This document shows, piece by piece, positions 3,632-62,712 of a stretch of DNA of 64,000 nucleotides; the first letter of the stretch is position 1; each line of letters starts with the position of its first letter. The position numbers and the translations under genes were made by a program. The DNA comes from Ceratodon purpureus (taxonomy: Eukaryota; Streptophyta; Bryopsida; Pseudoditrichales; Ditrichaceae): assembly GCA_014871385.1 (NCBI GenBank), contig CM026426.1, positions 37,077,918 to 37,141,917 on the forward strand, in the 5' to 3' direction. Under the pieces are notes generated by a model. That model ran no database searches. It saw only the letters and a program-made list of their open reading frames with translations, and was not told the DNA's origin.

Positions 3632-5386
3632 TCATGCCGAAGCTCTCTGCAGATCCCCTCTCTTATCCAGGTCAGACCTTCCGCATATCTGCACCTCTCC
3701 AGAACCAAAAAGGCCCGAAACTACACACTCTCCCGAGTTGATCCTGGGTTTCCGATGCCTCCTGTACGTCAGCACCATCAGAAAGTCCTTCGCCGAAGGG
3801 AAATCCGACGAGCTGCTCCCCTTCGCTACACCCGACGTCTCCCCCTGTCCAGCACCCTGTCCTTGTGCTTGAGCCTGCGGCTCCTCCGGAATCTGTGCAC
3901 TGAACCATATGTCCCGGATGCTTTCCAGGGGCAGGCTCGACACCACCGGCTGACCCCGGCACGTGATCTCCACTTCCATCTCGCTCGTCACCTTGTGTGC
4001 CAGCTTCTGCACCAGGTATTTCTTCACGTGATACACCGGCAGCTTTCCATCCTTGATTCGCACGAAGGGGGATGACAGCGCTGGGAGTGCATCCTCCCCG
4101 GCCGGGATGTCCCCGGATTCCAGGTGAAACCATATCCCGTTCGAAGTGCCCCGAGACGACTGACCTCCCACCATGCCTCCCGACAGTGTCTGACTGTTCT
4201 GCCGAAGGATCGAAGGTCGCTCCATCACCCCGTTCAGGATCTGCTTTGGCCGTGATTGCAGCGACTGCCCGTTCGGCAACGCTGCACCGCCGTCCTTCTG
4301 GCTCCACCCACCATTCCCAATCACCCGCTCCTTCATGTCCCTCGGCACGTCTCCGGTGTTCCCACTGCCCGGGGTCTGCAGCTCCAGCACACGAGATGGA
4401 GATGAGGGCCCGGACCCCGTCTCTTCCATGCCGGCATCCGCATTGGCCACCTGCGCCAGCGCATCCAGTGCAGATGGGAATTCCCCACCCCTCCCACCTC
4501 GCCCGGAGTTCGACGCCCCGTTGCTCTTCCTCGATCCCCGCGCGCTCCTCGACCCCGCTCCCGTCGCCGCGGACTTGTTGCCATTCGACACCGCCAGCTC
4601 CGACCGGTTGCCCAGCTTCGACGTCGTCCATGGCCTCGAGTTCGATGCCCGCAAGTTCTCCCAGTCCCCTATCGGGGTCGACGCCAACTCCTCTGCATTC
4701 GCCCGCCCTCTCCTCGGCTCCGACTGGGGGTACACCTTCGCCTCAGCGCCTTCCTTCGGAGACGATCTCTTGGACCCCCCATTGTGAGACACCGCCCTCG
4801 AGTCCAGCCGCAGCACGGTGCTTGGAGAGTCATCGGAGATGCCTTCATCCTCGCCATCGCCCCCATCCTCTAGCTCCTCGTCCATGCTACTCGGCTCGCT
4901 GCTGCCATGCGTGCCTGGCAACGCCCTCGTCTTGCGACTCGCATACCCCGGATTCACGGCCTGCGTGCCCTTTACCCCCAGTGAGTACAGCGACCTCTCC
5001 TTGCGCTTCGTCGCGTTCGACGTCTCTGGGCCGTCTAGCGACACGCTTGGCTTCCGCTTCTTCGGGTTCGTTGGGAAGAGCTTCTCCTTCAGATCGTTCA
5101 ATTGGTGGTCCGCCCGCAGCTTCTCCAGCGGGAGCGTCCCAAGCCCCACCTGGCACATCGGGCAGCACTCCGAGTCGCCATTGCTCAGCTCCAACGTGAT
5201 GCAGTCCCTGCAGAACGTGTGCAGGCACTCCGATATGGTGGTCGCTTCCCGGATCAGGTAGCTGCAGAGAGGACATGTCAGACACGCCGAGAGCGGCGCC
5301 TTCGGTACGCGCACTTCCTTGTATGTCCCGCCGCTCCTGCCACTATAGGGCATCATTCCCTCCGAGATCACAGCCCGTCCACGCAT
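3632..5386 (-). CDS. DRIP-like RING-type E3 ubiquitin ligase
   Basis: A 584-residue open frame without introns. A C3HC4 RING finger lies at about residues 38-78 (CPLC, CLHTFC, CPMC). It is followed by the stretch ending PLEKLR-DHQLNDLKEKLFP that is typical of Arabidopsis DRIP1/DRIP2. The middle is long, low-complexity and rich in Ser, Gly, Arg and Asn. The C-terminal ~130 residues carry a ubiquitin-like RAWUL-type region (RIKDGKLPV, KKYLVQKL, EVEITCRGQPV, KDFLMVLTY) matching DRIP and Polycomb-RING proteins. DRIP proteins ubiquitinate the DREB2A drought factor in Arabidopsis; a similar nuclear role here is inference. The start given is the first ATG (5384-5386). The frame stays open upstream to a good acceptor (TTTGTGCAG ending at 5491), so the real N-terminus may begin in an upstream exon. 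A GGTAAGT just before the ATG could be a competing donor. The C-terminal ~40 residues beyond the conserved domain look non-conserved. Confidence 0.88.
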   Translation of the reverse strand: MRGRAVISEGMMPYSGRSGGTYKEVRVPKAPLSACLTCPLCSYLIREATTISECLHTFCRDCITLELSNGDSECCPMCQVGLGTLPLEKLRADHQLNDLKEKLFPTNPKKRKPSVSLDGPETSNATKRKERSLYSLGVKGTQAVNPGYASRKTRALPGTHGSSEPSSMDEELEDGGDGEDEGISDDSPSTVLRLDSRAVSHNGGSKRSSPKEGAEAKVYPQSEPRRGRANAEELASTPIGDWENLRASNSRPWTTSKLGNRSELAVSNGNKSAATGAGSRSARGSRKSNGASNSGRGGRGGEFPSALDALAQVANADAGMEETGSGPSSPSRVLELQTPGSGNTGDVPRDMKERVIGNGGWSQKDGGAALPNGQSLQSRPKQILNGVMERPSILRQNSQTLSGGMVGGQSSRGTSNGIWFHLESGDIPAGEDALPALSSPFVRIKDGKLPVYHVKKYLVQKLAHKVTSEMEVEITCRGQPVVSSLPLESIRDIWFSAQIPEEPQAQAQGQGAGQGETSGVAKGSSSSDFPSAKDFLMVLTYRRHRKPRINSGECVVSGLFGSGEVQICGRSDLDKRGDLQRASA

Positions 5387-5490
5387 CGACTTACCAATGC
5401 CCTGGCCCTTCGCCAATGCCGCTAATTGCAGGACGTCGGAAGAATAGATCTTCTCAAACCGTCTCTGCCAGATAATTTGAAACGCCTTGG

Positions 5491-7167
5491 CTGCACAAAC
5501 AACGCATCACCCGCCATGCAATTAGCGAATATTGATCCCGAGAACGTGAAGCCATGATAAACTAACATGCAGAGAACAGAGCAACCGCAAAAAATTAAAA
5601 TCTTCGCCTTCTCGACGTCAAGATACTATGATTTCTCGCATGGCACAGACGCCAAGATCAACGCCATGGCCAGAACCCCGTGGTTCCTCGCGACCATTTC
5701 CACAACGTCATTCCTCACGTTCTTTGGGAAACAGCTCGGTGCCGCTTTCAACATTCGCCATGCTCAAGACGCAGGCCTAGATACTATTACCCACCCCCAT
5801 GCACTTAATTGACCAGACCCACAAAGATGCAGCCCATGACCGCTCCACCACATGTCACCATGATCTCTTCAACTGACGTCACACGCAACGGAAACATGTC
5901 CCATACTCCATCCCCCCATACTCCAAGCGCTATTTCCGTACACTTCCCCAGCATGGAGCCCTTATCAAAATCAGCTTCGCTTACTAATCCATAATGCGCC
6001 CAAACCACCCGGACACCAACCCAGCGGACCAGACTGTACATGCAATCTCAACCTAAGGCAGCCAGAACTCCCGACGTCACAAGATACATTTTAAAGAAAA
6101 CCCGAGCCAATCAATCAAAATATCAAACTTCCGTCCCGACCTCCCAACACACACCAGCTCACGCCATGTCCCATCGATCCACATGCATCGTAAATGAGTC
6201 GCCACGTCAAGGTTTCAACGGCCTCACCTACGCATCCGCGTGCCAATAATTAGGCGAGCAGTACCTCACGCAACACCACCATCGCCACAGTCCCGCAGAC
6301 GCCTGGCCGCCATACCCAACAACGGATGCCCTGCGCTACTGCCCGACCGCCCGACCGCCATGCGACGTGAATCAGAGTCGCAATCCATGTGCGGAGACGT
6401 TCCCACATCCGCAGCATGCGTAAAACCGCCTCCACAAAATCGCTATCGCCCGATTCAACCGTGCGAGCAAGCCCCCATGTCGTCAGACGCTCGCCATGAA
6501 TTAATCCCCGGCCGCCGCCAGCTTGGACGACGCAGCTCCGGTTGCCCTCGCCGCTGGGTTGACTGCGTCCGGTCGGCTCCGCGACGAGATCATTCCGCCA
6601 TGTCCACCCGCCCGGCTGGTTCTCGAAACCTACGTGACGTCGCCCATCCTCCGTCGCCCAATCTGGGCTCCGTCCCCGCTCTCCATGCATCAATTTGCCG
6701 TTGCGCCCGCGTCGTCGATCCAGCGCCCCGCTCCCACAAGATCCACTTCCCGCCCCGGCGACCGCGTCCGCCCTCCGTCGCGCCTCGTCGTCTCAGGCGA
6801 CGAGGAGCGGCCTCGGACCAGCGGAAGTGGACGACTGATAACTTAGTCATATGGTGGCGTGCGTGCCAGTAAGCTCCCGTACGATGGCGAGTACTTCGCA
6901 TCTACGCCGTCCGCACCTTGGCTGTATGAAGCAGCTTGTAATGAGTTCACGTGATCGGACGGTCGCGCCTACGTGGAAGGGCATCGGACGGTGGTGGGAG
7001 TGGACTCCTGGAGCCAGCTGCTCTGGTGGCAAATCAATCCAAGTTCAAACCATGCATTTGAACTTGGTTCCAACCATGAGTTACTTTTCGTCCTTTCCAG
7101 CTGCCATCATCAGGAAACTCTCCCCCTTAGAATTTTATATTGATTTAATATAAAATCGACTCAACAA
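5491..7167. promoter_or_regulatory. GC-rich, CpG-rich upstream region of the RING gene
   Basis: Composition rises sharply (many CG dinucleotides at 6240-6850) directly upstream of the minus-strand RING gene, as in plant promoters and 5' leaders with low methylation. Open frames exist on both strands (for example 6240-6872 plus and 6250-6693 minus), but all are Pro/Arg/Ser-rich, overlap each other and show no domain. I read this as promoter plus 5' untranslated sequence; a transcription start cannot be placed. Confidence 0.45.
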
Positions 7168-42825: not shown

Positions 42826-44700
42826 CTAGCGGAGGATATCTTCAACCGCATCCCGGCGGTGTCCTTCGTCGAACATATTGTGGAAGAGCTCGGCAATCCG
42901 GACATCGCCACCGTCGTCACCGTCAGATCCTGCGTCGTCCAATCCGGATTCCTCAAAGTCGCTCTCGGGTGGATCGTCGTCCGCAAGTCCGACACCCCCC
43001 ATGCCCAATCCGCCCTGTCCGACACCATCCATGCGGGCATCGTCCGCCACATCGTCCGCTACATGGTCTCCTCCCTGTCCGACGTCTTCCTCCTCGTCGT
43101 CCTCGTCCGGATCCTCGCCATCGAGGTCATCGTCGGAATGAACCTCCTCTAAGCCATACCACTGTGCCGGACGCGGGGCCCGGCGGTGACGAACAAGTCT
43201 ACTGCTCGTGTAGATATACACGAGGTCCTCCCCTCGTACATGTTTCAATCTATTGCGCACCTTGCTGTGCACGTAGGAGTACATGCTCCAGTTGCGCTCA
43301 CACGCAGACACGGAGCATACCTGTCTCAGTATACGTCTAGCTATTGTTTGGAGAGCCCGGGCTCCACCTCCCATTGCGTCCCACCATTTGTGGATAGTAG
43401 TGCCGTGCGCCTGGGGATCGGTTGAATCAGCAAATGCCCTTCGATTCTCGAGGAAATCCTGATACTGGACAAGGATCCGGACGTAATTCTCCTCGTTAGA
43501 CGATAACTTGCGAAGAACCCGGTTTAAAATGATCCTCAACTCCTCGTGGTTATGAAGTGGCGCCCATCCACGTAGGGTCGGGTTGAGCATCGAACCTGCC
43601 CAATGAAGATCTGTCAACATCATAGCCCATTTGTGGTCGAATGCGAGCATGGCGTCTGCTGCTAGGTCCGCGTTCAATCTAAACGGATGGGAGGAAAAAC
43701 TGCGGACGTGGTTCTTCAAATCGTACATCGCCCTCCAAGCTAGGCCCATTGCAGGTGCCTTCCCATCAAAAAGGCGTAATGCCTTCACCACTGGGATGAC
43801 CATGTATAAGAAGTTATGGCACGTGTTCCAGAAACCGTCCGCACGCACATACTTCCCCATCAGGCGGACCTTCCTCCCCGCTGAGCTGTTCACATCAGGA
43901 TAGGTTGCTAAAATACCTGCAGATGCCGGATCGATGACCATTCTCTCAAATGCATTCCGAAGTTCCACAAGACGCTCGATCATAATGAAATTGGTCGCGA
44001 ACCGCGTCTCAACGGGCAAACGGATGGTCAGATTGGGACACATCCTGCGAAACAAAGCCATTGATGAATGATGATTTCTAACCCATAGACAAATAAGTCT
44101 CGCCTTTCTGACTATGTGCTTCACCCAATCCTCCTTCCCCCAATCTTCGAGCAACAGATCCAAGCAGTGTGCGGCACACCCTTGAACATAAATGTGAGGA
44201 TATCGTGTCTTGAGCATCCGACTGGATCCAAGCATGTTCGGAGCACTGTCAGTGCAAACTTGGACAACATGTTGCGGTCCGACCCGATCCACAAACGGAC
44301 GGATCTGAGAAGCGATATAATCGCTATCTTTGTAATGTCCCGTCGTGTCTATGGTTCCAAGGAAAACGTCGCCATTGGTCCCACTCTGGATAACATTGAG
44401 AAGAGGACGACTCTGGACGTTGTCCCAACCGTCTGAACATATCGTAACACCGTATTTCTGTGTGGAATTGCCCGTGAGTTCCTTTACTTGTCTCACCATT
44501 TCCGCCTTTCTCGCGGTCAACAATTTTGTGCGAATAGCATTCATCCATGGTGGCAGGTATGCCAAGAAGCAGGATCGCACTGTTTCCCGAACGGCGTTAA
44601 TGAAGGCAGGATGCTTAACAACGTTGAATGGGATATTGGCTTCGTAGAATGCCGTCGCCCACACTTTATCTAATCGAAGCTTCGTGGAAGCGGGTAGCTT
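42826..44700 (-). pseudogene. hAT-family transposase, 5'-truncated
   Basis: About 620 residues of open frame. It contains a DUF659-type block (GVTICSDGWDNVQSRPLLN, VQVCTDSAPNMLGSSR, GCAAHCLDLLL) and the hAT C-terminal dimerisation motif (VSACERNWSMYSYVHSKVRN). An acidic tail follows. The catalytic Asp of CSDGW and CTDSAPN is present. The BED zinc finger and a start codon are missing: upstream of about 44700 the sequence switches abruptly into a ~200-bp repeat also found at 48.25 kb. The frame reads open into that repeat by chance and lacks an ATG there. So this is a truncated copy, well preserved in its remaining part. Confidence 0.85.
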
Positions 44701-44892
44701 GTACGTGAGCGGAGAGCGGTGAGCGGAGATTTGGAGAGCGGAGAGCACAGAATGGAGGACAGAACCTAAAAATAACAAATTTTTTACTAAAATTATAATA
44801 TAAAATTAGAAGATTCGAATATTCTCAGTATATTTTTGGAAAGTTACTAATTTTAGTAATTTAATTGACCCTATAACCGTGGACAATTTACA
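44690..44892 (-). repeat. ~200-bp terminal repeat, copy 1 (caps the hAT fragment)
   Basis: Begins GGGTAGCTTGTA, continues with short GCGGAGAGCGG-type repeats, an AT-rich middle with AGAAGATTC-AATATTCTCA, and ends TGACCCTATAACCGTGGAC. The same series is found at 48247-48463. The inward TAGGGTCA word resembles a hAT terminus, but no matching partner end was found. Confidence 0.6.
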
Positions 44893-46387: not shown

Positions 46388-48243
46388 CTACTTCTTCGCC
46401 AAGGGGTGACGCAAGATTCCACTCTCTAAGAGTAGCTTGACCTCGTTGAAGCTGAAGGTAGGCGCATGGATGAAAAGCTCGGCTTCGGGATCATGGTTGC
46501 TGACCTTCAAGAGTATGTAGTATAGGTGCTTACAATACGCGAACTGAGTCTTGCCACGGAACGTAGTCATCGTCTTCTTGAATGCTGGGCAAGTGCAACC
46601 AGGGTAAGAACTGATGGTAATCTGGTACCGTGTGATGTGTGGAGCAACGCTCGAATCCAGCCCAATGATGCAACCGTGGCCCGGCTTAGGTATCATGGTG
46701 ACGGAACGGAGGCGCGCTTTAAGAGACTCGGAGGAGCCCATGGACAGTTGCTGCGCTGGATTGGGACGAGTGGCAGTGCACTTCACCATCTTGCAGTCTC
46801 TCTTGCCTGGGTAGCGGTCAGCGTCTGCAGGGACTAGCACCGCACTAAGATTTTCTGGGGGCGGGGCAGAGGAGAAGAGGCGTCTTGGGGAGACCGGCTT
46901 CTTCGGCGGAAGTTGAAAGCCCGCTGCTTCGAGGGCAAGAATCTCAGTGAGTTTTAGGTTAGTACCTTGTTTCACTGGCCAGACCTCAGGAATGGAGGGG
47001 AATTCCTGGTCCTTTGAGTAGTGTGCTACCCACTAGCGCTTAGAGCCTTTCACGCAGCGCTCAATATCGTCGGAGCAGAAGAAGAACTTTGTTTTCTCGA
47101 CTATGTTCCTGCAATGGTTAGTCCAAAGCCCAGTGTAGGTCGGGCAGCTGTGTAATGGGGCCCCCTGACGATTATCTCAGTGCACTTCTTTTTCGTTTCA
47201 GCTCTTTGGGCCCAGCAGCACTTCGCAGAAAGTTTGTGAAGTCTCGAGATGTGCCACTCTTTCACCTCGACCTTGGTTTCTTCAACCGCGTTGACATGGC
47301 GAATGCCGCCCTTGTTCACAGGTGAAGGTAAAGGGAATCAACTGCCTGGGCAGGAGATTGGATACCTTCTACCTCGGTATCGTGTTCGGAGTCGTCTTCC
47401 ATAATGACGGGCATCTACATAAGGCGAGCCTTGACGGCACGTCTTGGGCCTCTTGGGCATGAGAAGTTTGTCTTGTCCGGGCGATGAGACTCCTCGTCAG
47501 CTCCGATGGGGACGTCAGCTTTTCGCTTCTGTGAACCGAAGACTTCCGCTCCAGGCATGATAGGCTGACGGGTGCAGAACTCATCCGCGCCTGGCATATC
47601 GAGCATGGGGTTTTCGAGCAGTGTAGGATTTCCCCATCTCTTCGCGTTGCGTTCCGCCATCCGGAACCTGAGTTCCTTCTTGGACGGTCCTTTACCGCCG
47701 ACGTCACCTTTGAGGAACTGGTAGTAGTTAACAACCTCTAGAAAAGCCCGAACGAAATCGTCCACGGTAGCAACGTAGAGGTCGTTCCCGTTGTTTCCTG
47801 AAGCTTAGAGCCACTTGTTGTGAACTGTTTCGGCGAGGTTACAGGTCAGCATCTCTGTGAGTTCTTTTTCCGTGAATTTCTGCAGATTTGACAGTAGGTG
47901 CCGTTAGATTCACCGATTAGAGTTTTGTAGGTTAGAGCTAGGAAACCAGTATCAAAAACATCAAAATAGAGTGCAGAGGTCATACCTCGGTCATGAATCC
48001 CCCCCAATGGCAGAAGCGGTGGTGCCAAAATGACAGCCACTGATCGAGTTTGATGAGCCCGCTCTCGCCAACTACCCCGGTGGATGCCCACCACGCTCGC
48101 AACGCGTGGTATAGGGTTTCCGCCTCAGCCATGCTGGTCGCATTCTTGTACTGAGTGCACATCTTCTTGTGCTGTTCCCAAAGTTTTGGGGAAGTGCTTC
48201 TGCGTATACGCCACCATGTTCTGTGTCCAGGGGAACAAGCACG
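46388..48243 (-). pseudogene. MULE-like transposase, copy A (3' half only, broken)
   Basis: Corresponds to the second half of copy B. It contains the helical block before the conserved intron, the intron itself (donor GTATGA, acceptor CTGCAG|AAATTC near 47881), a Cys/Lys-rich segment (SAKCCWAQR), and a SWIM-type zinc finger CTCPAF...YCKHLYYI near 46530-46590. It ends HPLAKK with TAG at 46388-46390. Several frame changes and stops interrupt the middle. The 5' half, including the DDE core, is absent: at about 48243 the sequence jumps into the ~200-bp terminal repeat. Confidence 0.72.
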
Positions 48244-48246
48244 GGG

Positions 48247-48463
48247 GTAGCTTGTATGCGTGCGGCGAGCGGCGAGCGGAGTGCGGCGAGCGGAGATTTG
48301 GTGAGCTACGAGCAGAAAATGAAGGTCTAAATCTAAAAACAGCAATATTATTACTAAAAATAAAAACTATTATTAGAAGATTCAAATATTCTCAAGATAT
48401 TTTAAGAATGTTCTAAGAATATTACTATTTTTGGTTATAATAATGACCCTATAACCGTGGACT
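48247..48463 (-). repeat. ~200-bp terminal repeat, copy 2 (caps the MULE A fragment)
   Basis: Same series of blocks as 44690-44892 and in the same orientation: GGGTAGCTTGTA, GCGGCGAGCGG repeats, TTAGAAGATTCAAATATTCTCA, and the ending TGACCCTATAACCGTGGAC. It is joined directly to a truncated MULE transposase, whereas copy 1 is joined to a truncated hAT transposase. Confidence 0.6.
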
Positions 48464-50409: not shown

Positions 50410-53400
50410 CTATTTTTTGGCCAAGGGGTGTGTCAAGATTCCGCTCTCTAGGACTAGCTTGACTTCGTTGAAACTAAAGGTAGGCGCAGGGATGAAAAGC
50501 TCGGCCTCTGGATTACGATTGCAGACCTTTAAAGGGATGTAATAAATATGTTTACAGTATGAAAACTGTATCTTACCTCGAAACTTAGTCATCGTCTTCC
50601 TGAATGCTGGACAAGTGGAACTTCGGGTAAGAGGTGATGGTGATGTTGTACTGTGTGATGTTTGGAGCAACGCCCGAATCCAGCCCGATGATGCAACCAT
50701 GGCCTAGATGAGGTATCATGGTGATGGAACGGAGGCGAGCCTTGAGGGACTGAGAGGAGCCCATGGAGAGTCGCTGCGCCGGGTTAGGTCGAGTTGCTGT
50801 GCGTTTGACCATCTTCCCATCTCGCTTACCAGGGTAGCGGTCAGCCTCTGCTGGAATTGGCAACGAAGCGAGGTTTGCAGGAGTCGGAGCAGACGAGAAG
50901 AGACGTCTTGGGGAGACAGGCTTCTATGGCGGGATTTGGAACCCTGCAGCTTCAAGGGCGAGGATCTCATTGAGCTTCAGGTTAGTACCTAGTTTTACGG
51001 GCCACACCTCTAGAATCGGCGGCACTTCGAGGTCCTTGGAGTAGTGTGCAACCCACTTGCGCCTTGTGCCTTTCACGCAGCGCTCAATATCATCGGAGCA
51101 GAAGAAAAACTCTGTCCTCTCAACCGTATTCCTGCGATAGTTAGTCCAAACTCCGGTGTAGGTCGGTGCAGCAGTGAAGTTTGGGCCCCTGACGATTCTC
51201 TCAGTGCACTTCTTTTTTGTACCAGTTCTTTGGGCCCAGCAGCACTTTGCAGAAGCTTTGTGAAGTCTTGCAATGTGCCACTCCTTCACATCAACCTTGG
51301 TTTCTTCTACAGCGTTGACATGGAAACGCCGACCTCGTTCACAGGAGACGTTGGGGGCGAGTAAGCTTCTTGGGCGGGAGATTCTTGGGCCTCTTCTTCT
51401 TCATAATCGTCCTCGACAATGATGGGCAGCTGGACAGTGCGAGCTCGAACGTTGCGTCCAACACCTCTAGGACGTGAGAAGTTAACCTTGTCTGGTCGGT
51501 GTGACTCCTCGTCAGCTCCGATGGGAACGTCCGCCTTACGCTTCTGTGATCCAAACACGTCAGCTCCGGCCAGGACAGGCTCACGGGTGCAGAACTCATC
51601 CGCACCAGGCATATCTAGCATGGGATCTTTAAGGACTTTAGGATTTCCTATTTTCTTCGCCAAGCGTTCCGCCATTCGAAGCTTGAGTTCCTTCTTCGAA
51701 GATCTAGTTCCGCCTACATCTCCTTTCAGGAACTGGTAGTAGTTTACAACCTGCAGAAAGCCCCAAACGTAATCGTCCACAGTCGCAACATAGAGGTCGC
51801 TGCCGTTGTTGCCTGATGCTTGTAACCACCTATTGTGAACTGTTTCGGCGAGGTTACAGGTCGGCATCTCTGTGAGTTCTTCTTCAGTAAATTTCTGCAG
51901 TTTGAGCAATTACAATAATTAGAATCAATTATAGAAGTGATGTCGATTAAATTTACCTCAACAAAAAACAAGTACAGCAGCAGAGTTTAGTAGCATCATA
52001 CCGCAGACATGAATCCACCCCATTGACGATAGCGGTGGTGCCAGAATGCGAGCGAAGTCCCCAGATTGGTTAGGGCCTTCTCTCCCAGGACCCTTGTAGA
52101 TATCCACCATGCGTGCAACGCGTGATAAAGAGTATCCGCCACTGTCAAAGTTGTTGCTGTCCTATACTGGTTGGACATCTTCTTGTGCTGTTCCCGGAGC
52201 TCTTCGGGGAAGTACTTGTCAGTGTACTGGACCATGTTCTGGTTCCAGTGGAACAAGCATGACCTTTCCCGATCCTCCATTTTTTTCTTTGTTGCCGTTT
52301 CCGTAGAGAATACGCACCGCATTCCAATTTGCTTGTGCGTTGTCCGCCATGAACCCTTTGAAGTTTGGCGCTGCAACGCCATTCCTCTCCATAACGCTGT
52401 TTAGGTTCTTCCGGAAGACCAGCTGAGCCTCAGTGTCCTCGGATTGCATGTCGCAACTTGCAATCGTCATGACGCGGCAATAGGTGGCGTCATATACATG
52501 GCAAGCCATCGTGGACCAATCCCGTACACGCTTCACGTGGTCGAACATAATCCAAGCATTGTCAAGATCCCCACCTGGTTGCATACTGGTGACCAAGTCG
52601 ACACCACTTCCGGGCCCAACTTCTGACATCTTGAAGACGAAGACCTTCTCTCTGTCAGCTCCTTGGCCCGGGAACTTGTTCTCTTGGACGAAGGCCCACA
52701 AACTGATCCCACGGAGTTTGGTGATGGCTTCCATCACTCCGTACCTCCCAATTCGCTTGAACGTCATCACCTTGTTGCGGATATTTGGGGAAGCCATGTC
52801 CTTGCACCGGTCAAGTACGGGAATGAGCTCCTCCATGCTGAGCTTCTTCGGTGGTGCGTCCTCCGGCTGTAGTAGGTAGTTCCCAATCAGAATCTTGCTG
52901 GCCTCCAGGACAACGGCGCTCTTCGTAGCCCAAGGAGTATTCTCCACCTGTTCTTCAATCAGGCTATTGATCTCCTCCTTAGTGTCTTTATAGTCCCCAA
53001 CCTTTACTGGATGATTATGTGTTCCCTGATGGATACATGCCCTAGTCTGGTTGGATTTACCTAGAACGTAATAAATCTTGGCTCCGCATGTAGCAATACA
53101 TGCAGGAGGTTCTTTACATACCTTGCAGACAAGTGTTGCATCCGCTGGGGGTGGCTGATTCACTGTAAAAGCTTGGAGGGTACTACCCTCAAACTCAGTC
53201 TCGTTTACCTCAACGATTCGAGGTCGATGGTTGAGAAATTCACATTCTTTGTTGACGCAGCGCAGCCAACCAACGCAGCTGGAATAGCGGAACGACAGGC
53301 CGAACTCGTTAGTGATGTTGGTAGTGATTGTCTTTGTCCAAACGTGGCCGTCGTAACGCTTGTCCATCCCCTTCATAGCCTTCGCTTGCGTCTTGGAAGC

Positions 53401-54111
53401 CTCGTCACCAACTGGAAGGAGCTCAAATATCACATTGTTGTTGAAGACTGCAGGTAAGTACTCCACCTTCTCCTGACGAACCGTGGAGAAATCTATTCTC
53501 TTCAGAATATTTTTCCTCCTCGGTCTCTCAGCTAGTGACCTAATGAGTGGCAGTACATTGACAGTCTCATCCTTTGATGTCTGTGAAGTACTGGCACATT
53601 TCTCTGGTCGTGTAGCTGGCTTGCTAGATACTACAGTCTCTCTAGGCAAAGGAGGTGATGCCTTCAGGGGACTAGTCTCTTCATCTGAGGAGAGGGAGAT
53701 GACTGGTGTTACATCAGGAGTAGGCTCTACCTTAACCTTCACATCACGAGGAAGAGGAGCCTGAACAGTGGATGATCTACGAGGAGTTAGAATCTCAGTA
53801 GACGCCTGCATCTGGGACTCTGTAAGACCATAAACTCTGTATCTACCAGGATAAAGGTTCCAGAACCTGTTATCATCATCATCTTTCTCAGAAACCTGAT
53901 CTAGCGTATGTGTAATCTCATTTGTCTCATCATCATAAATCTCTTCCTCTAAACAAACAGTCTCCTCTCTGAAGTGAAATTTGAGGCTGAGGCGTTGTGC
54001 AGTCACAAGTGCCAAGCCATCCTCATCTACACGTACTGTGAGTGGAATACCAACCCCATGAGCTCTGAGGACGGCCATGCCTAACACTCTATCTGCAGGG
54101 AGATGTGCCAT
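50410..54111 (-). pseudogene. MULE-like transposase, copy B (nearly full length, broken)
   Basis: True ATG at 54111. Residues ~255-370 form a Cys/His region (WLRCVNKEC, CKVCKEPP, HQGTHNHP) like the WRKY-GCM1 zinc cluster seen at the N-terminus of MULE transposases. Catalytic-type Asp residues lie at DATYCRVMTI (~541) and MADNAQANW (~590). The frame changes at a run of seven A near 52280, then continues in another frame through HALHAWW and FWHHRYRQWGGFM to an intron (donor GTATGA near 51999, acceptor CTGCAG at about 51898). This intron is shared with copy A. Further exonic blocks end with a SWIM-like finger (STCPAF...YCKH; the first Cys of CTC is lost) and HPLAKK. Several frame changes occur in the second half. 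Terminal inverted repeats and target duplications were not found. Confidence 0.78.
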
Positions 54112-54845
54112 TCTACTCAGTGGATCGCTTCAACAGGTACTACAAGAATTAGAGAATGCAATGAGAGAGGATTAGTGCATTGTTCTGGCTCCATTTATAC
54201 AAGGTTTAGTATACATCCTTTTAACTAATGATGACGATATCCGAACTACTAATAGATGAAAATGTTTAAAAGATCTAATAGGAAAAGCATTAATAGAGCC
54301 GTCATGGAAGTTTTGACACATACTGCATCGCTGTCAACATGATTATATTCCACATGTACATTCTGAAAGGTATTTGTACAGGATCCCAATATTTGATCAT
54401 GGAATGTAGTTGGGAATAATAGTTGAATTTCGGCGCGCATTTACTGTTTGGTTCTCCTTATTTATATATAGTTAATTCTGTTAGAATTTAGGAGCTACTT
54501 TACTTCCATATTGAGTCATGGCTCAAATTCGACTCGTTGTTGATGTGGACAAGATTAGGCTTCGCCGTCAAAGATCAGAGCACTAATAAATATTGTCTGA
54601 TAAATAGAATTATCATGAAGATTCCGTCTTAATTTTTTGAATTATTACGTAGAAGCATTGGGCGCTTCTGGAAGTATGGGAGGCTTAGGACGCAACCATA
54701 TGAATTGGGTCTCAGTCAGAGGCTGTCATTTGCTTTGTATTGAAGGAATAGATGGCTGTAGTGTGATATGCAAGGCAGTACTAGGAAGAAGAGGAGGAAG
54801 ACCAGTTTCTGTTATAGTTCCAAGAGGGTATTGGAACAAAGTAGA
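54112..54845. other. Upstream flank of MULE copy B
   Basis: AT-rich promoter flank of the transposase, then short frames without recognisable domains (54519-54590 and 54637-54894). The right end of the MULE element should lie here. A CGGCGCGC word at about 54430 weakly resembles the left-end GGGCGCC. Confidence 0.35.
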
Positions 54846-55654: not shown

Positions 55655-58600
55655 ATGCCGGAGGGGAGTGCTACGGAAATCGGCCCGGCCTCTGAAGAGG
55701 TCGAGATGGGCGATGCTGTCGATGGTGACCCCGTATCGGAGCTGCCAACTGGTGAAGACACTGGTGAGCTCGCCACAAATGAGTTCGATCATGAGGAGGA
55801 AGGACAACAAACTGGCGACGGTGAGGACCAAGTGACTGGCAAAGATGGGGCATCCGAGGATGGTAAGTACCCAAAAACCCTAACTCTTAGAGATTTTTAA
55901 AAGTAGTGAACACCCTTCCGAGGTACTGCCGTTAACAGCTGTACTAAGAAGGTGTCAATTTTCTTGCGAGATTTGTTCTCTGGTGCCGCTGCCGCAAGCA
56001 TTGAGACTCCACTAGGTACTGCCGTTAACGACAGTACCTCTAAGAGTGTTTTTTTTCCTTTCGGCGTTGCATCCACTGTGCACAACCAAACGGTTATCAA
56101 ACTCTGTCAGTGGTACCGCCGTTAACGGCAGTACCACAGCCCTGTCCGAGAGATTTATTTCCGGCAAGTCTGAAGTCGTGGTGCAACAATGCATTGGCAA
56201 CCTAAAACCATCTCGGGGGGTACTGCCGTTAACGGCTGTATCCTAAAGGACCCCGATTGAATTTCTTTTCGCTCATTGTAATGGTACTCATGATGCTTTC
56301 TCTGGTGTTTGTCATTCCCCAGTGTTTCTGCCGTCAATGAAAGTACCGTAAAGCGGCCCTCTGATTTTCTATAAACTACCAACCTTGACGAGGTTTTGTT
56401 TCTGATAAGTAGCTTTAACACCTCCTTGGGGTACTGCCGTTAACGGCGGTACCTGCAGGGCTCCTGAATTTATGTTTTTGTTATCAAACATCACCAGGCT
56501 TTGCCCAGCCAAAAAGTGTGCATCCCACCCCAGAAGTACTGCCGTTAATGGCAGTACCTCCCGATCTTAATTTGGTTTTATTTCAATCGAATTATCCCTA
56601 GTCCTTGCCCAGCCACAGATTGTGTGCAACCCCCCTTAGGAGTACTGCCGTTAACGGCAGTACCTAAAGGCCTTTATTTTTATTCCTAATACGTCGAACT
56701 CGACAGAGAACATGCCGAGCAACAGAGAGTGAATACCCCCAGGAGTACTGCCGTTAACGGCAGTACTTCCAGACTTGCCTTTTGTATTCTTTCTTGTGTA
56801 ATTTCATCGGCGATATCACAGTGTTACGAGGGTACTGCCGGTAATGGCAATACCCTCTGGCACTCATTCTTTTATTTCATTTCACAAACGACCTTGCCAT
56901 GGCAAGTAGCTATTACACCAATTTAACACCTCCAAAGGTACTGCCGTTAACGGCAGTACCTTATAAGCTAGTGGTTTTTTTTAATTCTCTATGACCTTTA
57001 TTTAATTCTGACAAGTTTTTCTGGTTTTTTACAGATGACCCTGATCTTCCGCTCACCCAAGCCGAGGTGAATTTGAAGCTCCACGACCTTGTTGGAAGCG
57101 CTACAACCAACACGGCTTCCAGGCTTGACCATTTGAAATGGAAGCCCACTCAGAAAGGTCTGCTAAATATACCTCTGTGCCGGATGATTGCACTCCCGGT
57201 TGTGAGGCCCTCACTGAAAAGCGACGTCCTCAACCTGGCATCCCACTTCTGGAACTGTACATACTTGACTGGCAATGGCTATTTCTATGTGGCACTTGAA
57301 GATAATCACGGTTTCACGAAGGATGTGACACCTGCAATCATGGAGATATGGAGTCCTGAATGGATGGAGAGGAACGATGAGTTCGAGGATATGTTGCTCT
57401 CAGACGATGATCTTAAGGTCTTCTCGAATAAAATGTTCATGGTCTGGGACGGAAACCATCGTCTTCAAGCATGGCTACCTATTGTAGAGCAGTACCATGA
57501 AGGGGACCTGAATTGGCATTTTTGTGTAGAAAGTGTCATATTAGATCCGAAAGGAGATGTTGGCTACGTCTTGGAAGCGCTTCATGAAGTCAATTGGTGA
57601 GCATTTCAGATTCTGTTTTATCATTTCCTGATTTTATTTCGCAGTGAGTAATTGATTATAATTGAAACTTAAAGACAATGCAAACGGTTTATGGCAGGCA
57701 GAACCAGAAGTCACATGTTGAAACCAATATTGTCCACAAGCTATATCGGATTCAGAATATAGCCCCTCAACCATTCCAATATTTTGAAGGCATTGTCACT
57801 AAAGCTACGCTAGACAGTGCGAAAGCCAAACAGGCTGGACCAAAGCGAACTTGGTATACGCTGACTCTTGAAGGACTTACCGGGGTGCTTTATCAGGTAT
57901 TTATGTACTTCTTGAATGACATTTAAAGAAGATTTTGTATCAATCTTTAAAGAACCTTCTAAACATTGCTGATATTCTTGCAGCAAGAACTTGGAGAGGC
58001 GGCAGCTGCAGCGGAGAGAAGGTTCTACGAAAGATATCCAAACCCCAAGGAGTGGACAACAAAGTCTGTTGGTGAGTGGATTACCAAGGCCGTGAAGAGG
58101 GCAGCGGACAAATTCCAGAATGATCTGAAAAAACTGCTTCCTATTGCCGACCCAGAAAACAAGCCCGCTTTCCTTGAGCAGATTAGACTACATTACGAAA
58201 AGTTCGATGAGTCGCCGGAAATGACACAAGAAAAGCTTTGGATGTTTGCTACATCTGCCATGCCTTCAAAGATGAAAATAAAATGGCTTCAGGGATGGAA
58301 CTCACCCCCGGCGATTCATGAATCACACAGGTTCCCGAAGAAAGACTTTACTGATATTTCCTTCCCACCCTGGCTTCACAAGGCAACTTGGTGGGCTCAG
58401 GTACGTCAGACTCTTGCATTTGTGAATATAGGTTTCATACCTCGACCATTTGAAATACATTTTAAATTTTTTTCACACCTAAGTATAAGCCGTAGGAGAC
58501 TGAGTTTCTGCAATGTGCGAGGGGCCTCTTATATCAAAAGAACCTTAATCGACCTCGGCCATTGCAGGAGCTTATGCGGGGTACAGCCGTTAACGGCAGT

Positions 58601-61472
58601 ATCCTGGCCCTCCTTTAGTATGAGAAATTTTCGGGGTCCTTCACCTGTAAGCCCCTACGGCAGCATGCGAGGTCCCTTCCCAGGTACTGCCGTTAACGGC
58701 AGTACCCGGGGCCTTCATTTACCCGGGGACTTCATTCATCCACAGGGTCCTCATTGACCACGCTGCCTTGCTTAGGCAGCGTGTTGCTTTAACGGGGGGA
58801 CAGCCGGTAATGGCAGTATCCGGGGTCTGCATTTACTAGTAATGCTTTTGCTCGGGCCCTCCTTGGGTACTGCCGTTAACGGCGGTACCCGGGGTCCTCT
58901 TTGACTTCGCTGCCTCTCTTTGGCAGTGTGTTGCATCATCGGGGGTACAGCCGTTAACGGCAGTACCCCCAAGCTATTGTAGGGGCCCTCCTTGGGTACT
59001 GCCGTTAACGGCAGTACCCTTGGGCTCCTTTTCTTGCTCGTTTCAGTCTTGCCATCTCATGGCACCACGCTGACGGGAAACTCTGTTGGCGGCATTACCT
59101 GCCGGTAAGCATTGAACCCGAGGAATTAACAATCTTAGTTTGCCTGGCTAATGGCTTTCTCAATGTCTTGTCCTGCAGATCGCAGTTGAGGCCGAAGCCC
59201 TATTCGCGGGGGTGATAGAGGATATGGGAGTGACAATTAACTACGAACCTAAGGGAGAGAGTCCAATCGAAAACATATTCGATTACGTAGAATCGATGCG
59301 GTGCTCCCTATGGGATTCTGCCTGCTTCAGGGAGTTTAAGGGTGACAATGGCGTGCACAAGAACAAGACTTCCACTGAGATGCCTAATTTTAAGCAAGCA
59401 TGTCGAAGGGTTCTGTATAGGTACTTTAAGTACATATTGTACCCTCGCAAGGCAACTTCGAAGGTCCCAGCATTCTTCGGAAATTACCTTGATAGCACCA
59501 GCAGCGAATGTATGTTCACTCCAGCGATTCTCAAGGCGTGGGACCCTATACATTACGACCGCTGTGGATGGTACTTGGATTGCGCTGTCAGTAAGTGCCC
59601 CACCTTTGATATTGCCTTACGGGACAGTTTACAGCCAATTCTCTCTAGCCTGCCTTCACAGACTCCACCTGAGGCTGACGGGCCATCTCCTAAAGTTCGA
59701 AAGGGGAGGGCGAAGAGAGGAGCGCCGAAGTCAGGGGGTCGGAAACGAAAGGCAGCTGATGTTGATGAAGGAGCTGATGCAGATGAAGACGTTGCAGCGA
59801 CTGATGCAGCTAGCAGTGAGAGAACAGTAATGGTCCCTATTCTACCGTGCTCTACTTCTGTTGATCCTGGACCCCAGTCCAAGAAGCGCCCCCCCATCTC
59901 GCCTCCACAGACTGCTCTAGTTGCACCTCTCACAGCCCCTGCTACTAAGACCATGTCGGTCTCACAAGCTTGCTCTTCGTCGGTACACTTATCCAGTGTA
60001 CTTGTGCTGAATGATTCTTTTTCCAGGATGGCGGAGTTAAGGATGAAGACCAAGAAGTTCCCAGAGTCGTACGACTCCTTGGTTTTGTTTTTAGTAAAGG
60101 TGACTCTCTAGACATGATCAAGTTCTCTAACCTCAACAAACTTATATTTATCATTATCTTCTCATTATTCATTTTGTTTCTTTGCAGGCCGGGACTGGAA
60201 GGGAGTTCTATTTCGAGGGAAAGCTCTTGTCAAGACCCGCGGCAGACCTTGTGATTGCAGAATTTCCAGACGGTCTCCCTGTGCCTGGAATCTCTCAGCC
60301 TCCAGCATCGGTTCCCTCCTGGAATGCAATAGTTCAAGATTTCCTGAAGCACAGCATTGGGTTCCTTGGAGGATTCCTTCATGACGACGGTGCTTTCCTC
60401 TTTTTCTATCCAGATAACCCTCAGATTAAAAAGGAGATATTCGCCTTTTTCAACAGAAACAACCTCAAAATGATGGAGGAGTGGACTATCTGCAACGACC
60501 TTCACTCCTCTCATCCACTCACGCCTCGGAAGTTGGTAGGCACATCTCAACATTATATTCTGATTTATTTATGTCAGGTAAAAAGCCTTTTCACTAATTC
60601 ATTTGTTATATATTGCAGACACTAAAGACAAGGGCAATAGTACTTGTTCGATCTTTCAAGACTTCTCTGTTAAGGCAACCGAAAGAGCACGTGTTCTCTG
60701 TCGATCCTCGATTTGGCAAAGTAAAGCTGGGATCAGATGACGTTATCCACAATGTTGTCACAGAAGATTCTGCCCTTAAAAAGGCAGATGGGTCGATGTG
60801 GAGGGGACCAAAAGAGAAATGCGTTTCTCTGCTACAGCTCTTTATGAATACATTTACTCCGACTGCTGGGATAGTCATGGACCTTACCGCTGGAGTTGGT
60901 AAGTTATATTTGATTTGAATTTTGCGTCTCACTTAAATGATCAATCATCATTCTAATCTTATGTATGCTTACAGGAGCTTCGATACGTGCTGCCAAGTTG
61001 GAGGGCAGACACATTGTAGCATTAGTGACGGATTCTGATATATTCAAAGAATTGCTCCAACCCCTCCATATCTCTGCTGAACCACTCCCTGGCACCGGTG
61101 CTCCTCAAATTGACATCGACGATGATGACGAAACCCCGCTCCTTGATGAGGAAAAGATAGATTACTGTGAGTAAGTTTTACCTCATCTGGATTTCTAAAT
61201 TATTGTAAATTCTCAATCTGATGTTGATTCTCATACGTGCGTTGTGATGCAGTCGGGTTCTGATCTTGCCAAAGCTTTGGCATCTCGCTGGATCACCACC
61301 AAGTCCAACATTTGATCTCCCAGTATACGCTGAGTCTCGAGCACGTTATTTAGCTGAGATATCTTCTAACAGTTCAAGTGCATCTTCTAGCCCACATTCA
61401 AGACTAGATTCGAGAGCTAGAATCTTTATGGACTTGAGTGCCTCCGAATCAGAAGACGAATTTTTTCCATAG
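55655..61472 (+). CDS. ParB-like plus permuted DNA methyltransferase-like protein, ten exons
   Basis: Exons: 55655-55862, 57035-57596, 57698-57896, 57984-58390, 59047-59104, 59179-60099, 60188-60535, 60619-60898, 60975-61170, 61253-61472. All use GT-AG, phases agree, and the sum is 1132 codons plus TAG. The acidic N-terminus is followed by a ParB/sulfiredoxin-type motif VWDGNHRLQAW (DGNHR at ~208-212). A helical region and a basic nuclear-type patch (KVRKGRAKRG, GGRKRK, ~650-669) come next. Then comes a domain ordered like beta-class amino-methyltransferases: ADLVIAEFPDG (~804-814) where DPPY is expected, then GPKEKCVSLL and DLTAGVGAS (989-997) like the S-adenosylmethionine loop DPFxGSGTT. 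Loss of DPPY argues against normal catalysis. One caution: exon 4 needs donor GTGGGC at 58391, because the better-looking CAG|GTACGT at 58401 breaks phase. Function is unknown. ParB-methylase fusions are known in prokaryotic mobile elements, so ancient transfer is possible. Confidence 0.78.
55863..57034 (+). repeat. Intron 1 palindrome array, 11 units
   Basis: Copies of GGTAC + TGCCGTTAACGGCA + GTACC (24-bp palindrome, some with one to several changes) start near 55922, 56015, 56112, 56219, 56321 (degenerate), 56430, 56534, 56641, 56744, 56831 and 56937. Spacing is 87-109 bp, mostly 93-107. Spacers are only loosely related (T-rich after the palindrome, C-rich words such as GCCCAGCCA before the next). 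This points to an old tandem repeat whose palindrome alone stayed conserved. Confidence 0.92.
58391..59046 (+). repeat. Intron 4 palindrome array, 6 units
   Basis: The same palindrome as in intron 1 starts near 58580, 58683, 58797, 58866, 58944 and 58995, with spacing of 51-114 bp. Spacers are C-rich and contain GGGGTCCTC-type and TTGCTTxxGGCAGCGTGTTGC-type words. Some units read ACAGCCG instead of ACTGCCG in the left arm. Confidence 0.92.
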
Positions 61473-62340: not shown

Positions 62341-62712
62341 CTGTCCCTGTGCCTATCCCAGTCACTTCTCTTGCCGGGACTCTGTGCTTGCTCGCGCCTG
62401 GACTCTCCCTGTCCCTCTCGCGTCGGGACCTGCAACAAAACTTCCTAACCCTCCCGCGCCGGGACTCGCGACGGGAGTCCCTGTCCCTACTCGCGCCGGG
62501 ACTCGCGACGGGACTCCCTATCCCTCCCGCGCCGGGACTCGCGACGGGAGTCCCTGTCCCTACTCGCGCCGGGACTCGCGACGGGACTCCCTATCCCTCC
62601 CGCGCCGGGACTCGCGACGGGAGTCCCTGTCCCTGCTCGCGCCGAGACTCGCGTCGGGACTCCCTATCCCTCCCGTGCCGGGACTTCCTATCCCTTTCGC
62701 ACCGGGACTTGT
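62340..62712. repeat. GC-rich minisatellite, ~36-bp monomer in ~72-bp dimers
   Basis: Units CGCCGGGACTCGCGACGGGA and GTCCCTGTCCCTACTCG alternate with a CTCCCTATCCCTCCCG variant, giving a higher-order dimer. GGGACTC and GAGTCCC within a unit can pair. Flanking units are more diverged. Long Pro/Arg/Ser frames through it are repeat artefacts. Confidence 0.88.

What the first reader, a model, noticed from the sequence alone, without database searches (positions are those of the whole stretch)
55863..59046. Seventeen conserved GTTAAC-centred palindromes in two introns of one gene
Intron 1 has 11 and intron 4 has 6 copies of a 24-bp palindrome (core TGCCGTTAACGGCA between GGTAC and GTACC). In intron 1 they are spaced near 100 bp. 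Spacers have diverged strongly, yet most palindromes are perfect or one base off, with some paired arm changes. Neutral tandem repeats should decay evenly, so the palindrome looks selected, homogenised or repeatedly inserted. Candidate roles are a dimeric protein operator, a transcribed hairpin giving small RNAs, or an element end.
Basis: seen in the sequence. Interest (0 to 1): 0.9.

Follow-up and report, generated by a model that had tools for sequence, protein, structure and literature searches.

The report
Palindrome arrays inside a ParB-like gene
A gene of what is probably a green alga or moss carries 17 copies of one 24-letter DNA palindrome in two of its introns, kept much more alike than the DNA between them, and the gene itself seems to encode a relative of bacterial proteins that grip DNA at palindromes.

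The parts
55655..61174 (+). Host gene, inferred CDS span (9 exons: 55655-55862, 57035-57597, 57702-57896, 57984-58390, 59047-59104, 59179-60099, 60188-60535, 60619-60898, 60975-about 61174); first and last exon ends uncertain
   Evidence: Open frame across the inferred junctions; a Ceratodon protein reads through the exon 2-3-4 joins, with one extra residue at the first (P0194)
55863..57034 (+). Intron 1, holding 11 palindromes
   Evidence: Sequence and splice ends
58391..59046 (+). Intron 4, holding 6 palindromes; donor at 58391 keeps the frame, donor at 58401 would not
55922..55945 (.). Palindrome 1 (3 differences from consensus)
56015..56038 (.). Palindrome 2 (1 difference)
56112..56135 (.). 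Palindrome 3 (1 difference, at position 7)
56219..56242 (.). Palindrome 4 (2 differences)
56324..56347 (.). Palindrome 5, most decayed (6 differences)
56430..56453 (.). Palindrome 6 (1 difference, at position 7)
56535..56558 (.). Palindrome 7 (2 differences)
56641..56664 (.). Palindrome 8 (1 difference)
56744..56767 (.). Palindrome 9 (2 differences that form the one compensated pair)
56831..56854 (.). Palindrome 10 (3 differences; GGTAAT centre)
56937..56960 (.). Palindrome 11 (exact consensus)
58580..58603 (.). Palindrome 12 (2 differences)
58683..58706 (.). Palindrome 13 (exact consensus)
58797..58820 (.). Palindrome 14 (5 differences; GGTAAT centre as in copy 10)
58866..58889 (.). Palindrome 15 (1 difference; same as copy 6)
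58944..58967 (.). Palindrome 16 (1 difference, at position 7)
58995..59018 (.). Palindrome 17 (exact consensus)
57037..57597 (+). Exon 2: ParB/sulfiredoxin-fold domain with DGNHR motif
60188..61174 (+). C-terminal region (exons 7-9) resembling a beta-class N6/N4 DNA methylase, DPPY-like motif apparently degenerate (EFPD, by eye)
   Evidence: Pfam N6_N4_Mtase E 0.092, below cut-off; M.CcrMI E 0.91

Best explanation
The two introns carry an array of operator sites. Shown: several ~100-bp units were duplicated in tandem, both introns hold the same 24-bp dyad, and GGTAC-N-GCCGTTAACGGC-N-GTACC was kept far better than the rest. Inferred: it is kept because a sequence-specific protein, bound as a symmetric dimer (or two dimers), recognises it in DNA, and many sites in cis give dense loading that regulates or marks the gene's chromatin from inside its transcription unit.
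For: Core pairwise identity 0.86 against 0.335 (positions 13-24) and 0.294 (25-48). Sharp symmetric edges: 1.40 bits at position 12, 0.47 at 13, 0.00 at 15 over 34 half-sites. Position 7 varies in 8 of 34 half-sites against 23 of 374 at the other core positions (p = 0.002) and is never compensated, as expected of a base a protein does not read. Alignable spacers differ at 50 of 204 sites against palindromes 10 of 120. No core covariation, no wobble bias, one compensated pair. Exon 2 is modelled with the ParB-N fold, a fold whose canonical members load at palindromic sites (palindromic nature recalled; parS-loading CTP clamp in passages of PMC12704722). VANC21 precedent: the protein binds motif arrays in introns of its own gene, and arrays evolve by tandem repeat formation (PMC5735166 passages).
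Against: No binding, expression or chromatin data. The helix-turn-helix that reads parS in canonical ParB was not looked for by structure. ParB-fold proteins include enzymes such as sulfiredoxin and serine kinase that are not DNA clamps (PMC12704722 passages); sulfiredoxins are the first three Foldseek rows, and all Foldseek E-values there are weak. Flanks at 13-18 are more self-complementary within copies than across (44 of 102 against 32.4, p = 0.003, range chosen after looking), which a pure DNA operator does not need; there is also weak residual conservation at 16-17 (0.38-0.50 bits). The pair 13-14/15-16 alone does not show palindromes better kept than spacers (p = 0.28). Whether the site occurs elsewhere in the genome is unknown. 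Neutral homogenisation of a short core is not excluded.
Confidence: 0.45

Rival explanations
1. The palindromes act in RNA: 10-bp stems with a UUAA loop in the pre-mRNA that bind a protein, compact the intron or control splicing.
For: Introns are transcribed with the gene (general knowledge), the array folds far below shuffles (intron 4 z = -8.9, expected of any palindrome array), and flanks 13-18 show weak extra complementarity.
Against: Of 204 core cells 29 are not Watson-Crick (10 are G.U, 19 do not pair) and 1 is compensated; outside the loop G.U 10 against A.C 7, p = 0.63; no core covariation; the would-be loop TTAA is as conserved as the stem; mid-stem pair 7 is unpaired in 6 of 17 copies and G.U in 2 more; spacers unstructured, mean z -0.07 over 15.
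Confidence: 0.2
2. Neutral or selfish repeat: a satellite-like array, or a short palindromic element, kept alike by gene conversion or repeated copying, with no function.
For: Variants are shared across introns (GGTAAT centre in copies 10 and 14; the same position-7 change in copies 6 and 15), and CCTCCTTGG occurs three times in the window, each time just before a palindrome (copies 6, 15, 17), so exchange between introns is likely. Core identity across introns (0.866) is as high as within intron 1 (0.848).
Against: Conversion should not stop symmetrically at about position 12 on both sides while spacers stay unalike. No general target-site duplication: 1 of 17 at 2 bp, 2 of 17 at 4 bp, 0 of 17 at 3, 5, 8 and 9 bp. 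No further copy in 64 kb with up to two core mismatches.
Confidence: 0.27
3. Binding site of an unrelated host regulator, for example a MYB-type factor, since the centre CCGTTAACGG is two back-to-back AACGG cores (motif recalled, not from a call).
For: 27 of the window's 97 AACGG cores (both strands) lie in these two introns, which follows from the palindromes themselves.
Against: The outer GGTAC block is also conserved, and the flanking bases fit the recalled MSA consensus poorly.
Confidence: 0.08

Closest known systems
VANDAL21 / VANC21 motif arrays (Arabidopsis transposons; PMC5735166, passages read)
   Same: Short motif in dense arrays in introns of VANC21 and VANB21 and other non-coding parts of one element family, evolving by tandem repeat formation, read by the element's own protein.
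   Different: VANC21's motif is 9 bases (YAGTATTAY), arrayed in one orientation; 'palindrom' does not occur in that text. Here it is a 24-bp palindrome, the host protein has a ParB-like fold, and binding is unproven.
Bacterial and plasmid ParB-parS, Noc-NBS and KorB-operator clamps
   Same: Exon 2 of the host gene is modelled with the ParB-N fold, and the sites are dyad symmetric and clustered within the gene.
   Different: Eukaryotic split gene; the site sequence is unlike parS (recalled); the DNA-reading HTH was not tested; no ParA partner was looked for.
Phage ParB-fold/N6_N4 methylase fusions (PMC12704722, passages read)
   Same: The same pair of parts is suggested: a ParB-like domain and a methylase-like region.
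   Different: Methylase match is sub-threshold and its DPPY-like motif looks degenerate; the passages name sulfiredoxin as the commonest eukaryotic member.
Organellar palindromic repeats / repetitive hairpin elements (listing only) and introner elements (PMC7789003, passages read)
   Same: Short repeated palindromes or inverted repeats in non-coding DNA or introns.
   Different: Amoebophrya introners have inverted repeats linking the two ends of an intron and direct repeats at its borders; here the array is internal, without general direct repeats, and no further copy was found in the window.

Membership tests
VANC-type self-targeting motif array | Motif dense in non-coding parts of the gene or element and absent nearby | tested here: met
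   17 copies in two introns; no other match with up to two core mismatches in 64 kb; intron-wide blastn gives only six short chance-level matches outside (E 0.12-0.76), none at a palindrome
VANC-type self-targeting motif array | Array grows by tandem repeat formation | tested here: met
   Spacers 6-7/7-8/8-9 (z 5.8-9.0) and 13-14/15-16 (z 10.8) are homologous; many other spacers show no detectable homology
VANC-type self-targeting motif array | Protein of the element binds the motif | not testable with these tools
   needs EMSA, DAP-seq or ChIP
VANC-type self-targeting motif array | Carried by a VANDAL-type (MULE) transposon | tested here: inconclusive
   An ORF at 52219-54129 (-) has at least 100 homologs but no Pfam match at E <= 0.1 in 16 of 16 members scanned; its MULE likeness is recalled, and it is not shown to belong with this gene
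ParB-fold protein (host gene) | ParB-N / sulfiredoxin fold | tested here: met
ParB-fold protein (host gene) | Pfam ParB-domain match by sequence | tested here: not met
   No ParB family at E <= 1 for exon 2 nor at E <= 0.1 in 88 members; there DUF5531 matches 16 members (best 0.0046) and DndB one (0.0059)
ParB-fold protein (host gene) | HTH that reads a palindromic site | not tested
N6/N4 DNA methylase (C-terminus) | Family match above cut-off and DPPY-type motif | tested here: not met
   13.1 bits against cut-off 26.7; motif reads EFPD by eye
MITE or element end | Target-site duplications flanking copies | tested here: not met
   1 of 17 at 2 bp, 2 of 17 at 4 bp, 0 of 17 at 3, 5, 8, 9 bp; allowing offsets of 0-4 bases, 3 of 17 at 4 bp and 0 of 17 at 5 bp
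Structured RNA hairpin | Compensatory changes in the stem | tested here: not met
   1 compensated core pair against 29 non-Watson-Crick, 10 of them G.U; a weak post hoc excess of pairing at 13-18

The most novel reading that the evidence does not exclude
A eukaryotic ParB-parS-like self-recognition system: a multi-copy, possibly mobile plant gene family encodes a ParB-fold clamp fused to a methylase-derived domain that loads on palindrome arrays in its own introns and spreads from there to mark or protect its own copies against silencing.
Probability: 0.12. Interest if true: 0.9.

Novelty: new variant of a known kind. Interest (0 to 1): 0.6.

Why it matters
If the array is read by the gene's own product, a clamp-loading principle known from bacterial chromosome segregation would be at work in a plant nucleus, in a repetitive gene family, with a 24-bp site that can be tested directly. 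Even if another protein reads it, 17 closely similar 24-bp dyads inside one transcription unit make an unusually clean natural operator array.

Tried and rejected
Coding function of the palindromes: in one frame they read VLPLTAVP on either strand, and a 94-aa antisense frame (58772-59056) holds four copies. But 6 of 10 intron 1 spacings are not multiples of 3, so coding is unlikely.

Helical phasing: spacings at 10.5 bp give R = 0.37 for 15 intervals, not significant by my reckoning.

Known RNA: no Rfam match at the gathering score in the window and no tRNA.

Second hairpins in spacers: a few, for example 58757-58785, but the mean z over 15 spacers is -0.07 against 0.11 for 60 random pieces. 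Whole-intron folds largely pair one palindrome with another and say little.

Elsewhere in public data: the 20-mer TACTGCCGTTAACGGCAGTA has 0 matches in viral contigs and 0 in genome contigs; neither is expected to hold this organism. Exon 2 gave no relative in viral contigs and one 19-residue match in a bacterial MAG (L001; not used).

The full-length protein search found nothing at E <= 0.001, probably because the collection holds single-exon ORFs outside its length range; exon 2 alone found 94.

Exon 2 folded without an alignment gave pLDDT 34 and was discarded. A profile of exon 2 against PDB sequences gave only chance-level rows (best E 0.48), and PHROGs none for exon 2. The neighbouring ORF had no phage match.

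Paper searches: 0 papers hold the string GTTAACGGCAGTA; 0 hold the two Chara combinations tried; from the listings I picked out none about a eukaryotic ParB-methylase gene with intronic sites. Absence from print is claimed for no wider scope.

Mended on recheck: copy 14 stood two bases off register, corrected to 58802. The intron-against-window blastn printed no rows; run again it gives six short chance-level matches outside the introns. The spacer test left out the alignable pair 13-14/15-16, which alone shows no significant contrast (p = 0.28); with it the total is 50 of 204 against 10 of 120, p = 0.0002. The spacer score 5-6/14-15 (z 3.1) is no better than the best reverse-strand control (3.4) among 342 comparisons, so I no longer rest on it.

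Full report
What is there. The window looks like a nuclear stretch of a plant-lineage genome. It holds a RING gene with a weak RAWUL match (3632-5506, minus), a hAT transposase (42826-44805, minus), and repetitive ORFs. The finding lies in a gene on the plus strand, 55655 to about 61174, whose exons I inferred from open frames and GT..AG ends. A Ceratodon purpureus protein reads through the exon 2-3-4 joins, with one extra residue at the first, which supports them (P0194). The organism's name is not known from any call; a charophyte alga such as Chara is my guess.

The palindromes. Seventeen copies of GGTACTGCCGTTAACGGCAGTACC lie at the stated place, 11 in intron 1 and 6 in intron 4. All 15 matches to the 14-bp core with up to two mismatches are in these introns, chance expectation 0.08. 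A local search of the introns against the rest of the window gives only six short chance-level matches, none at a palindrome. Four copies are perfect palindromes over 12 pairs, six have one mismatched pair, and seven have two to six.

Palindrome against spacer. Aligned on their centres without gaps, the 17 copies agree 86% over the core, 34% at positions 13-24 and 29% at 25-48. The step is abrupt: information per half-site falls from 1.40 bits at position 12 to 0.47 at 13, 0.18 at 14 and 0.00 at 15, with a small rise (0.38-0.50) at 16-17. Most spacers show no detectable homology. Those that do (6-7, 7-8, 8-9 and 13-14, 15-16) show that at least those units arose by tandem duplication. In units 6/7 and 7/8 the spacers differ at 40 of 150 aligned sites plus gaps, while palindromes 6 to 9 differ between neighbours at 5 of 72 (p = 0.0006). 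The pair 13-14/15-16, which I had first left out, differs at 10 of 54 spacer sites and 5 of 48 palindrome sites (p = 0.28 alone); all together 50 of 204 against 10 of 120, p = 0.0002. The pairs share units, so the p-values are rough. Even decay of the whole unit is unlikely.

Relation of the two introns. Core identity across introns (0.866) is as high as within intron 1 (0.848). Copies 6 and 15 share the same position-7 change and copies 10 and 14 the same GGTAAT centre. CCTCCTTGG occurs three times in the window, just before copies 6, 15 and 17. So units were probably copied between the introns. There is no general target-site duplication (1 of 17 at 2 bp, 2 of 17 at 4 bp, none at 3, 5, 8, 9), so the copies do not look like separate insertions.

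DNA site or RNA hairpin. If pairing mattered, changes should be compensated. In the core they mostly are not: of 204 pair cells, 29 are not Watson-Crick (10 G.U, 19 unpaired) and one is compensated; outside the loop G.U is not favoured over A.C (10 against 7, p = 0.63). Arm complementarity within copies equals that across copies (175 against 175.3). The would-be loop is as conserved as the stem. Position 7 is free: 8 of 34 half-sites changed against 23 of 374 at the other core positions (p = 0.002). Two fixed blocks with one free base between them is how a protein-read half-site looks. Against this, positions 13-18 are more complementary within copies than across (44 of 102 against 32.4, p = 0.003 overall; at 13-14, p = 0.02 when shuffled within introns). 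I chose those ranges after looking, so I give it little weight, but it keeps the RNA or cruciform reading alive. Spacers show no extra structure (mean z -0.07, control 0.11).

How it most likely works. I favour an operator array: a dimeric protein reads the dyad, and clustering many sites in one transcription unit gives cooperative loading. The nearest precedent is VANC21, whose 9-base motif is arrayed in introns of VANC21 and VANB21 and evolves by tandem repeat formation (PMC5735166, passages read). That the host gene has the fold of a palindrome-loaded clamp makes self-recognition an attractive but untested step. Shown: the array, its excess conservation, the modelled fold of exon 2, and the multi-copy family. 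Inferred: protein reading in DNA.

What limits this. The own-genome search did not complete (15 of 15), so I cannot say whether the site is confined to this family. No RNA, methylation or binding data were available.

Noticed in passing
46388-48366 and 50410-52400, minus strand: Two similar copies of the 3' part of a repetitive transposase-like gene (shared KPVSPRRLFSSAP... stretch and a SWIM-like C-x-C...H pattern, both by eye), suggesting a local duplication behind the ORF at 52219-54129, which has at least 100 database homologs.
   Followed up: partly
62405-62685: Tandem array of period 73 (36-base half-unit) rich in the near-palindrome GGGACTCGCGACGGGAGTCCC, just downstream of the gene.
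   Followed up: no
58772-59056, minus strand: 94-aa antisense frame across four intron-4 palindromes that repeats a VLPLTAVP-like peptide; spacings between the last five copies are all multiples of 3 (114, 69, 78, 51).
   Followed up: partly
58757-58785 and about 58915-58940: Secondary hairpin CGCTGCC..GGCAG(C/T)G in two homologous spacers of intron 4, possibly an old decayed palindrome copy.
   Followed up: no
58390-58410: Two possible donors for intron 4: the canonical-looking CAG|GTACGT breaks the frame and TTG|GTGGGC keeps it; a candidate for alternative splicing next to the array.
   Followed up: partly
57037-57597 family (P0101-P0194): A ParB/sulfiredoxin-fold gene family with many members, two of them in the moss Ceratodon purpureus; I did not see it in the passages of the 2025 fold survey that I read (PMC12704722).
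   Followed up: partly
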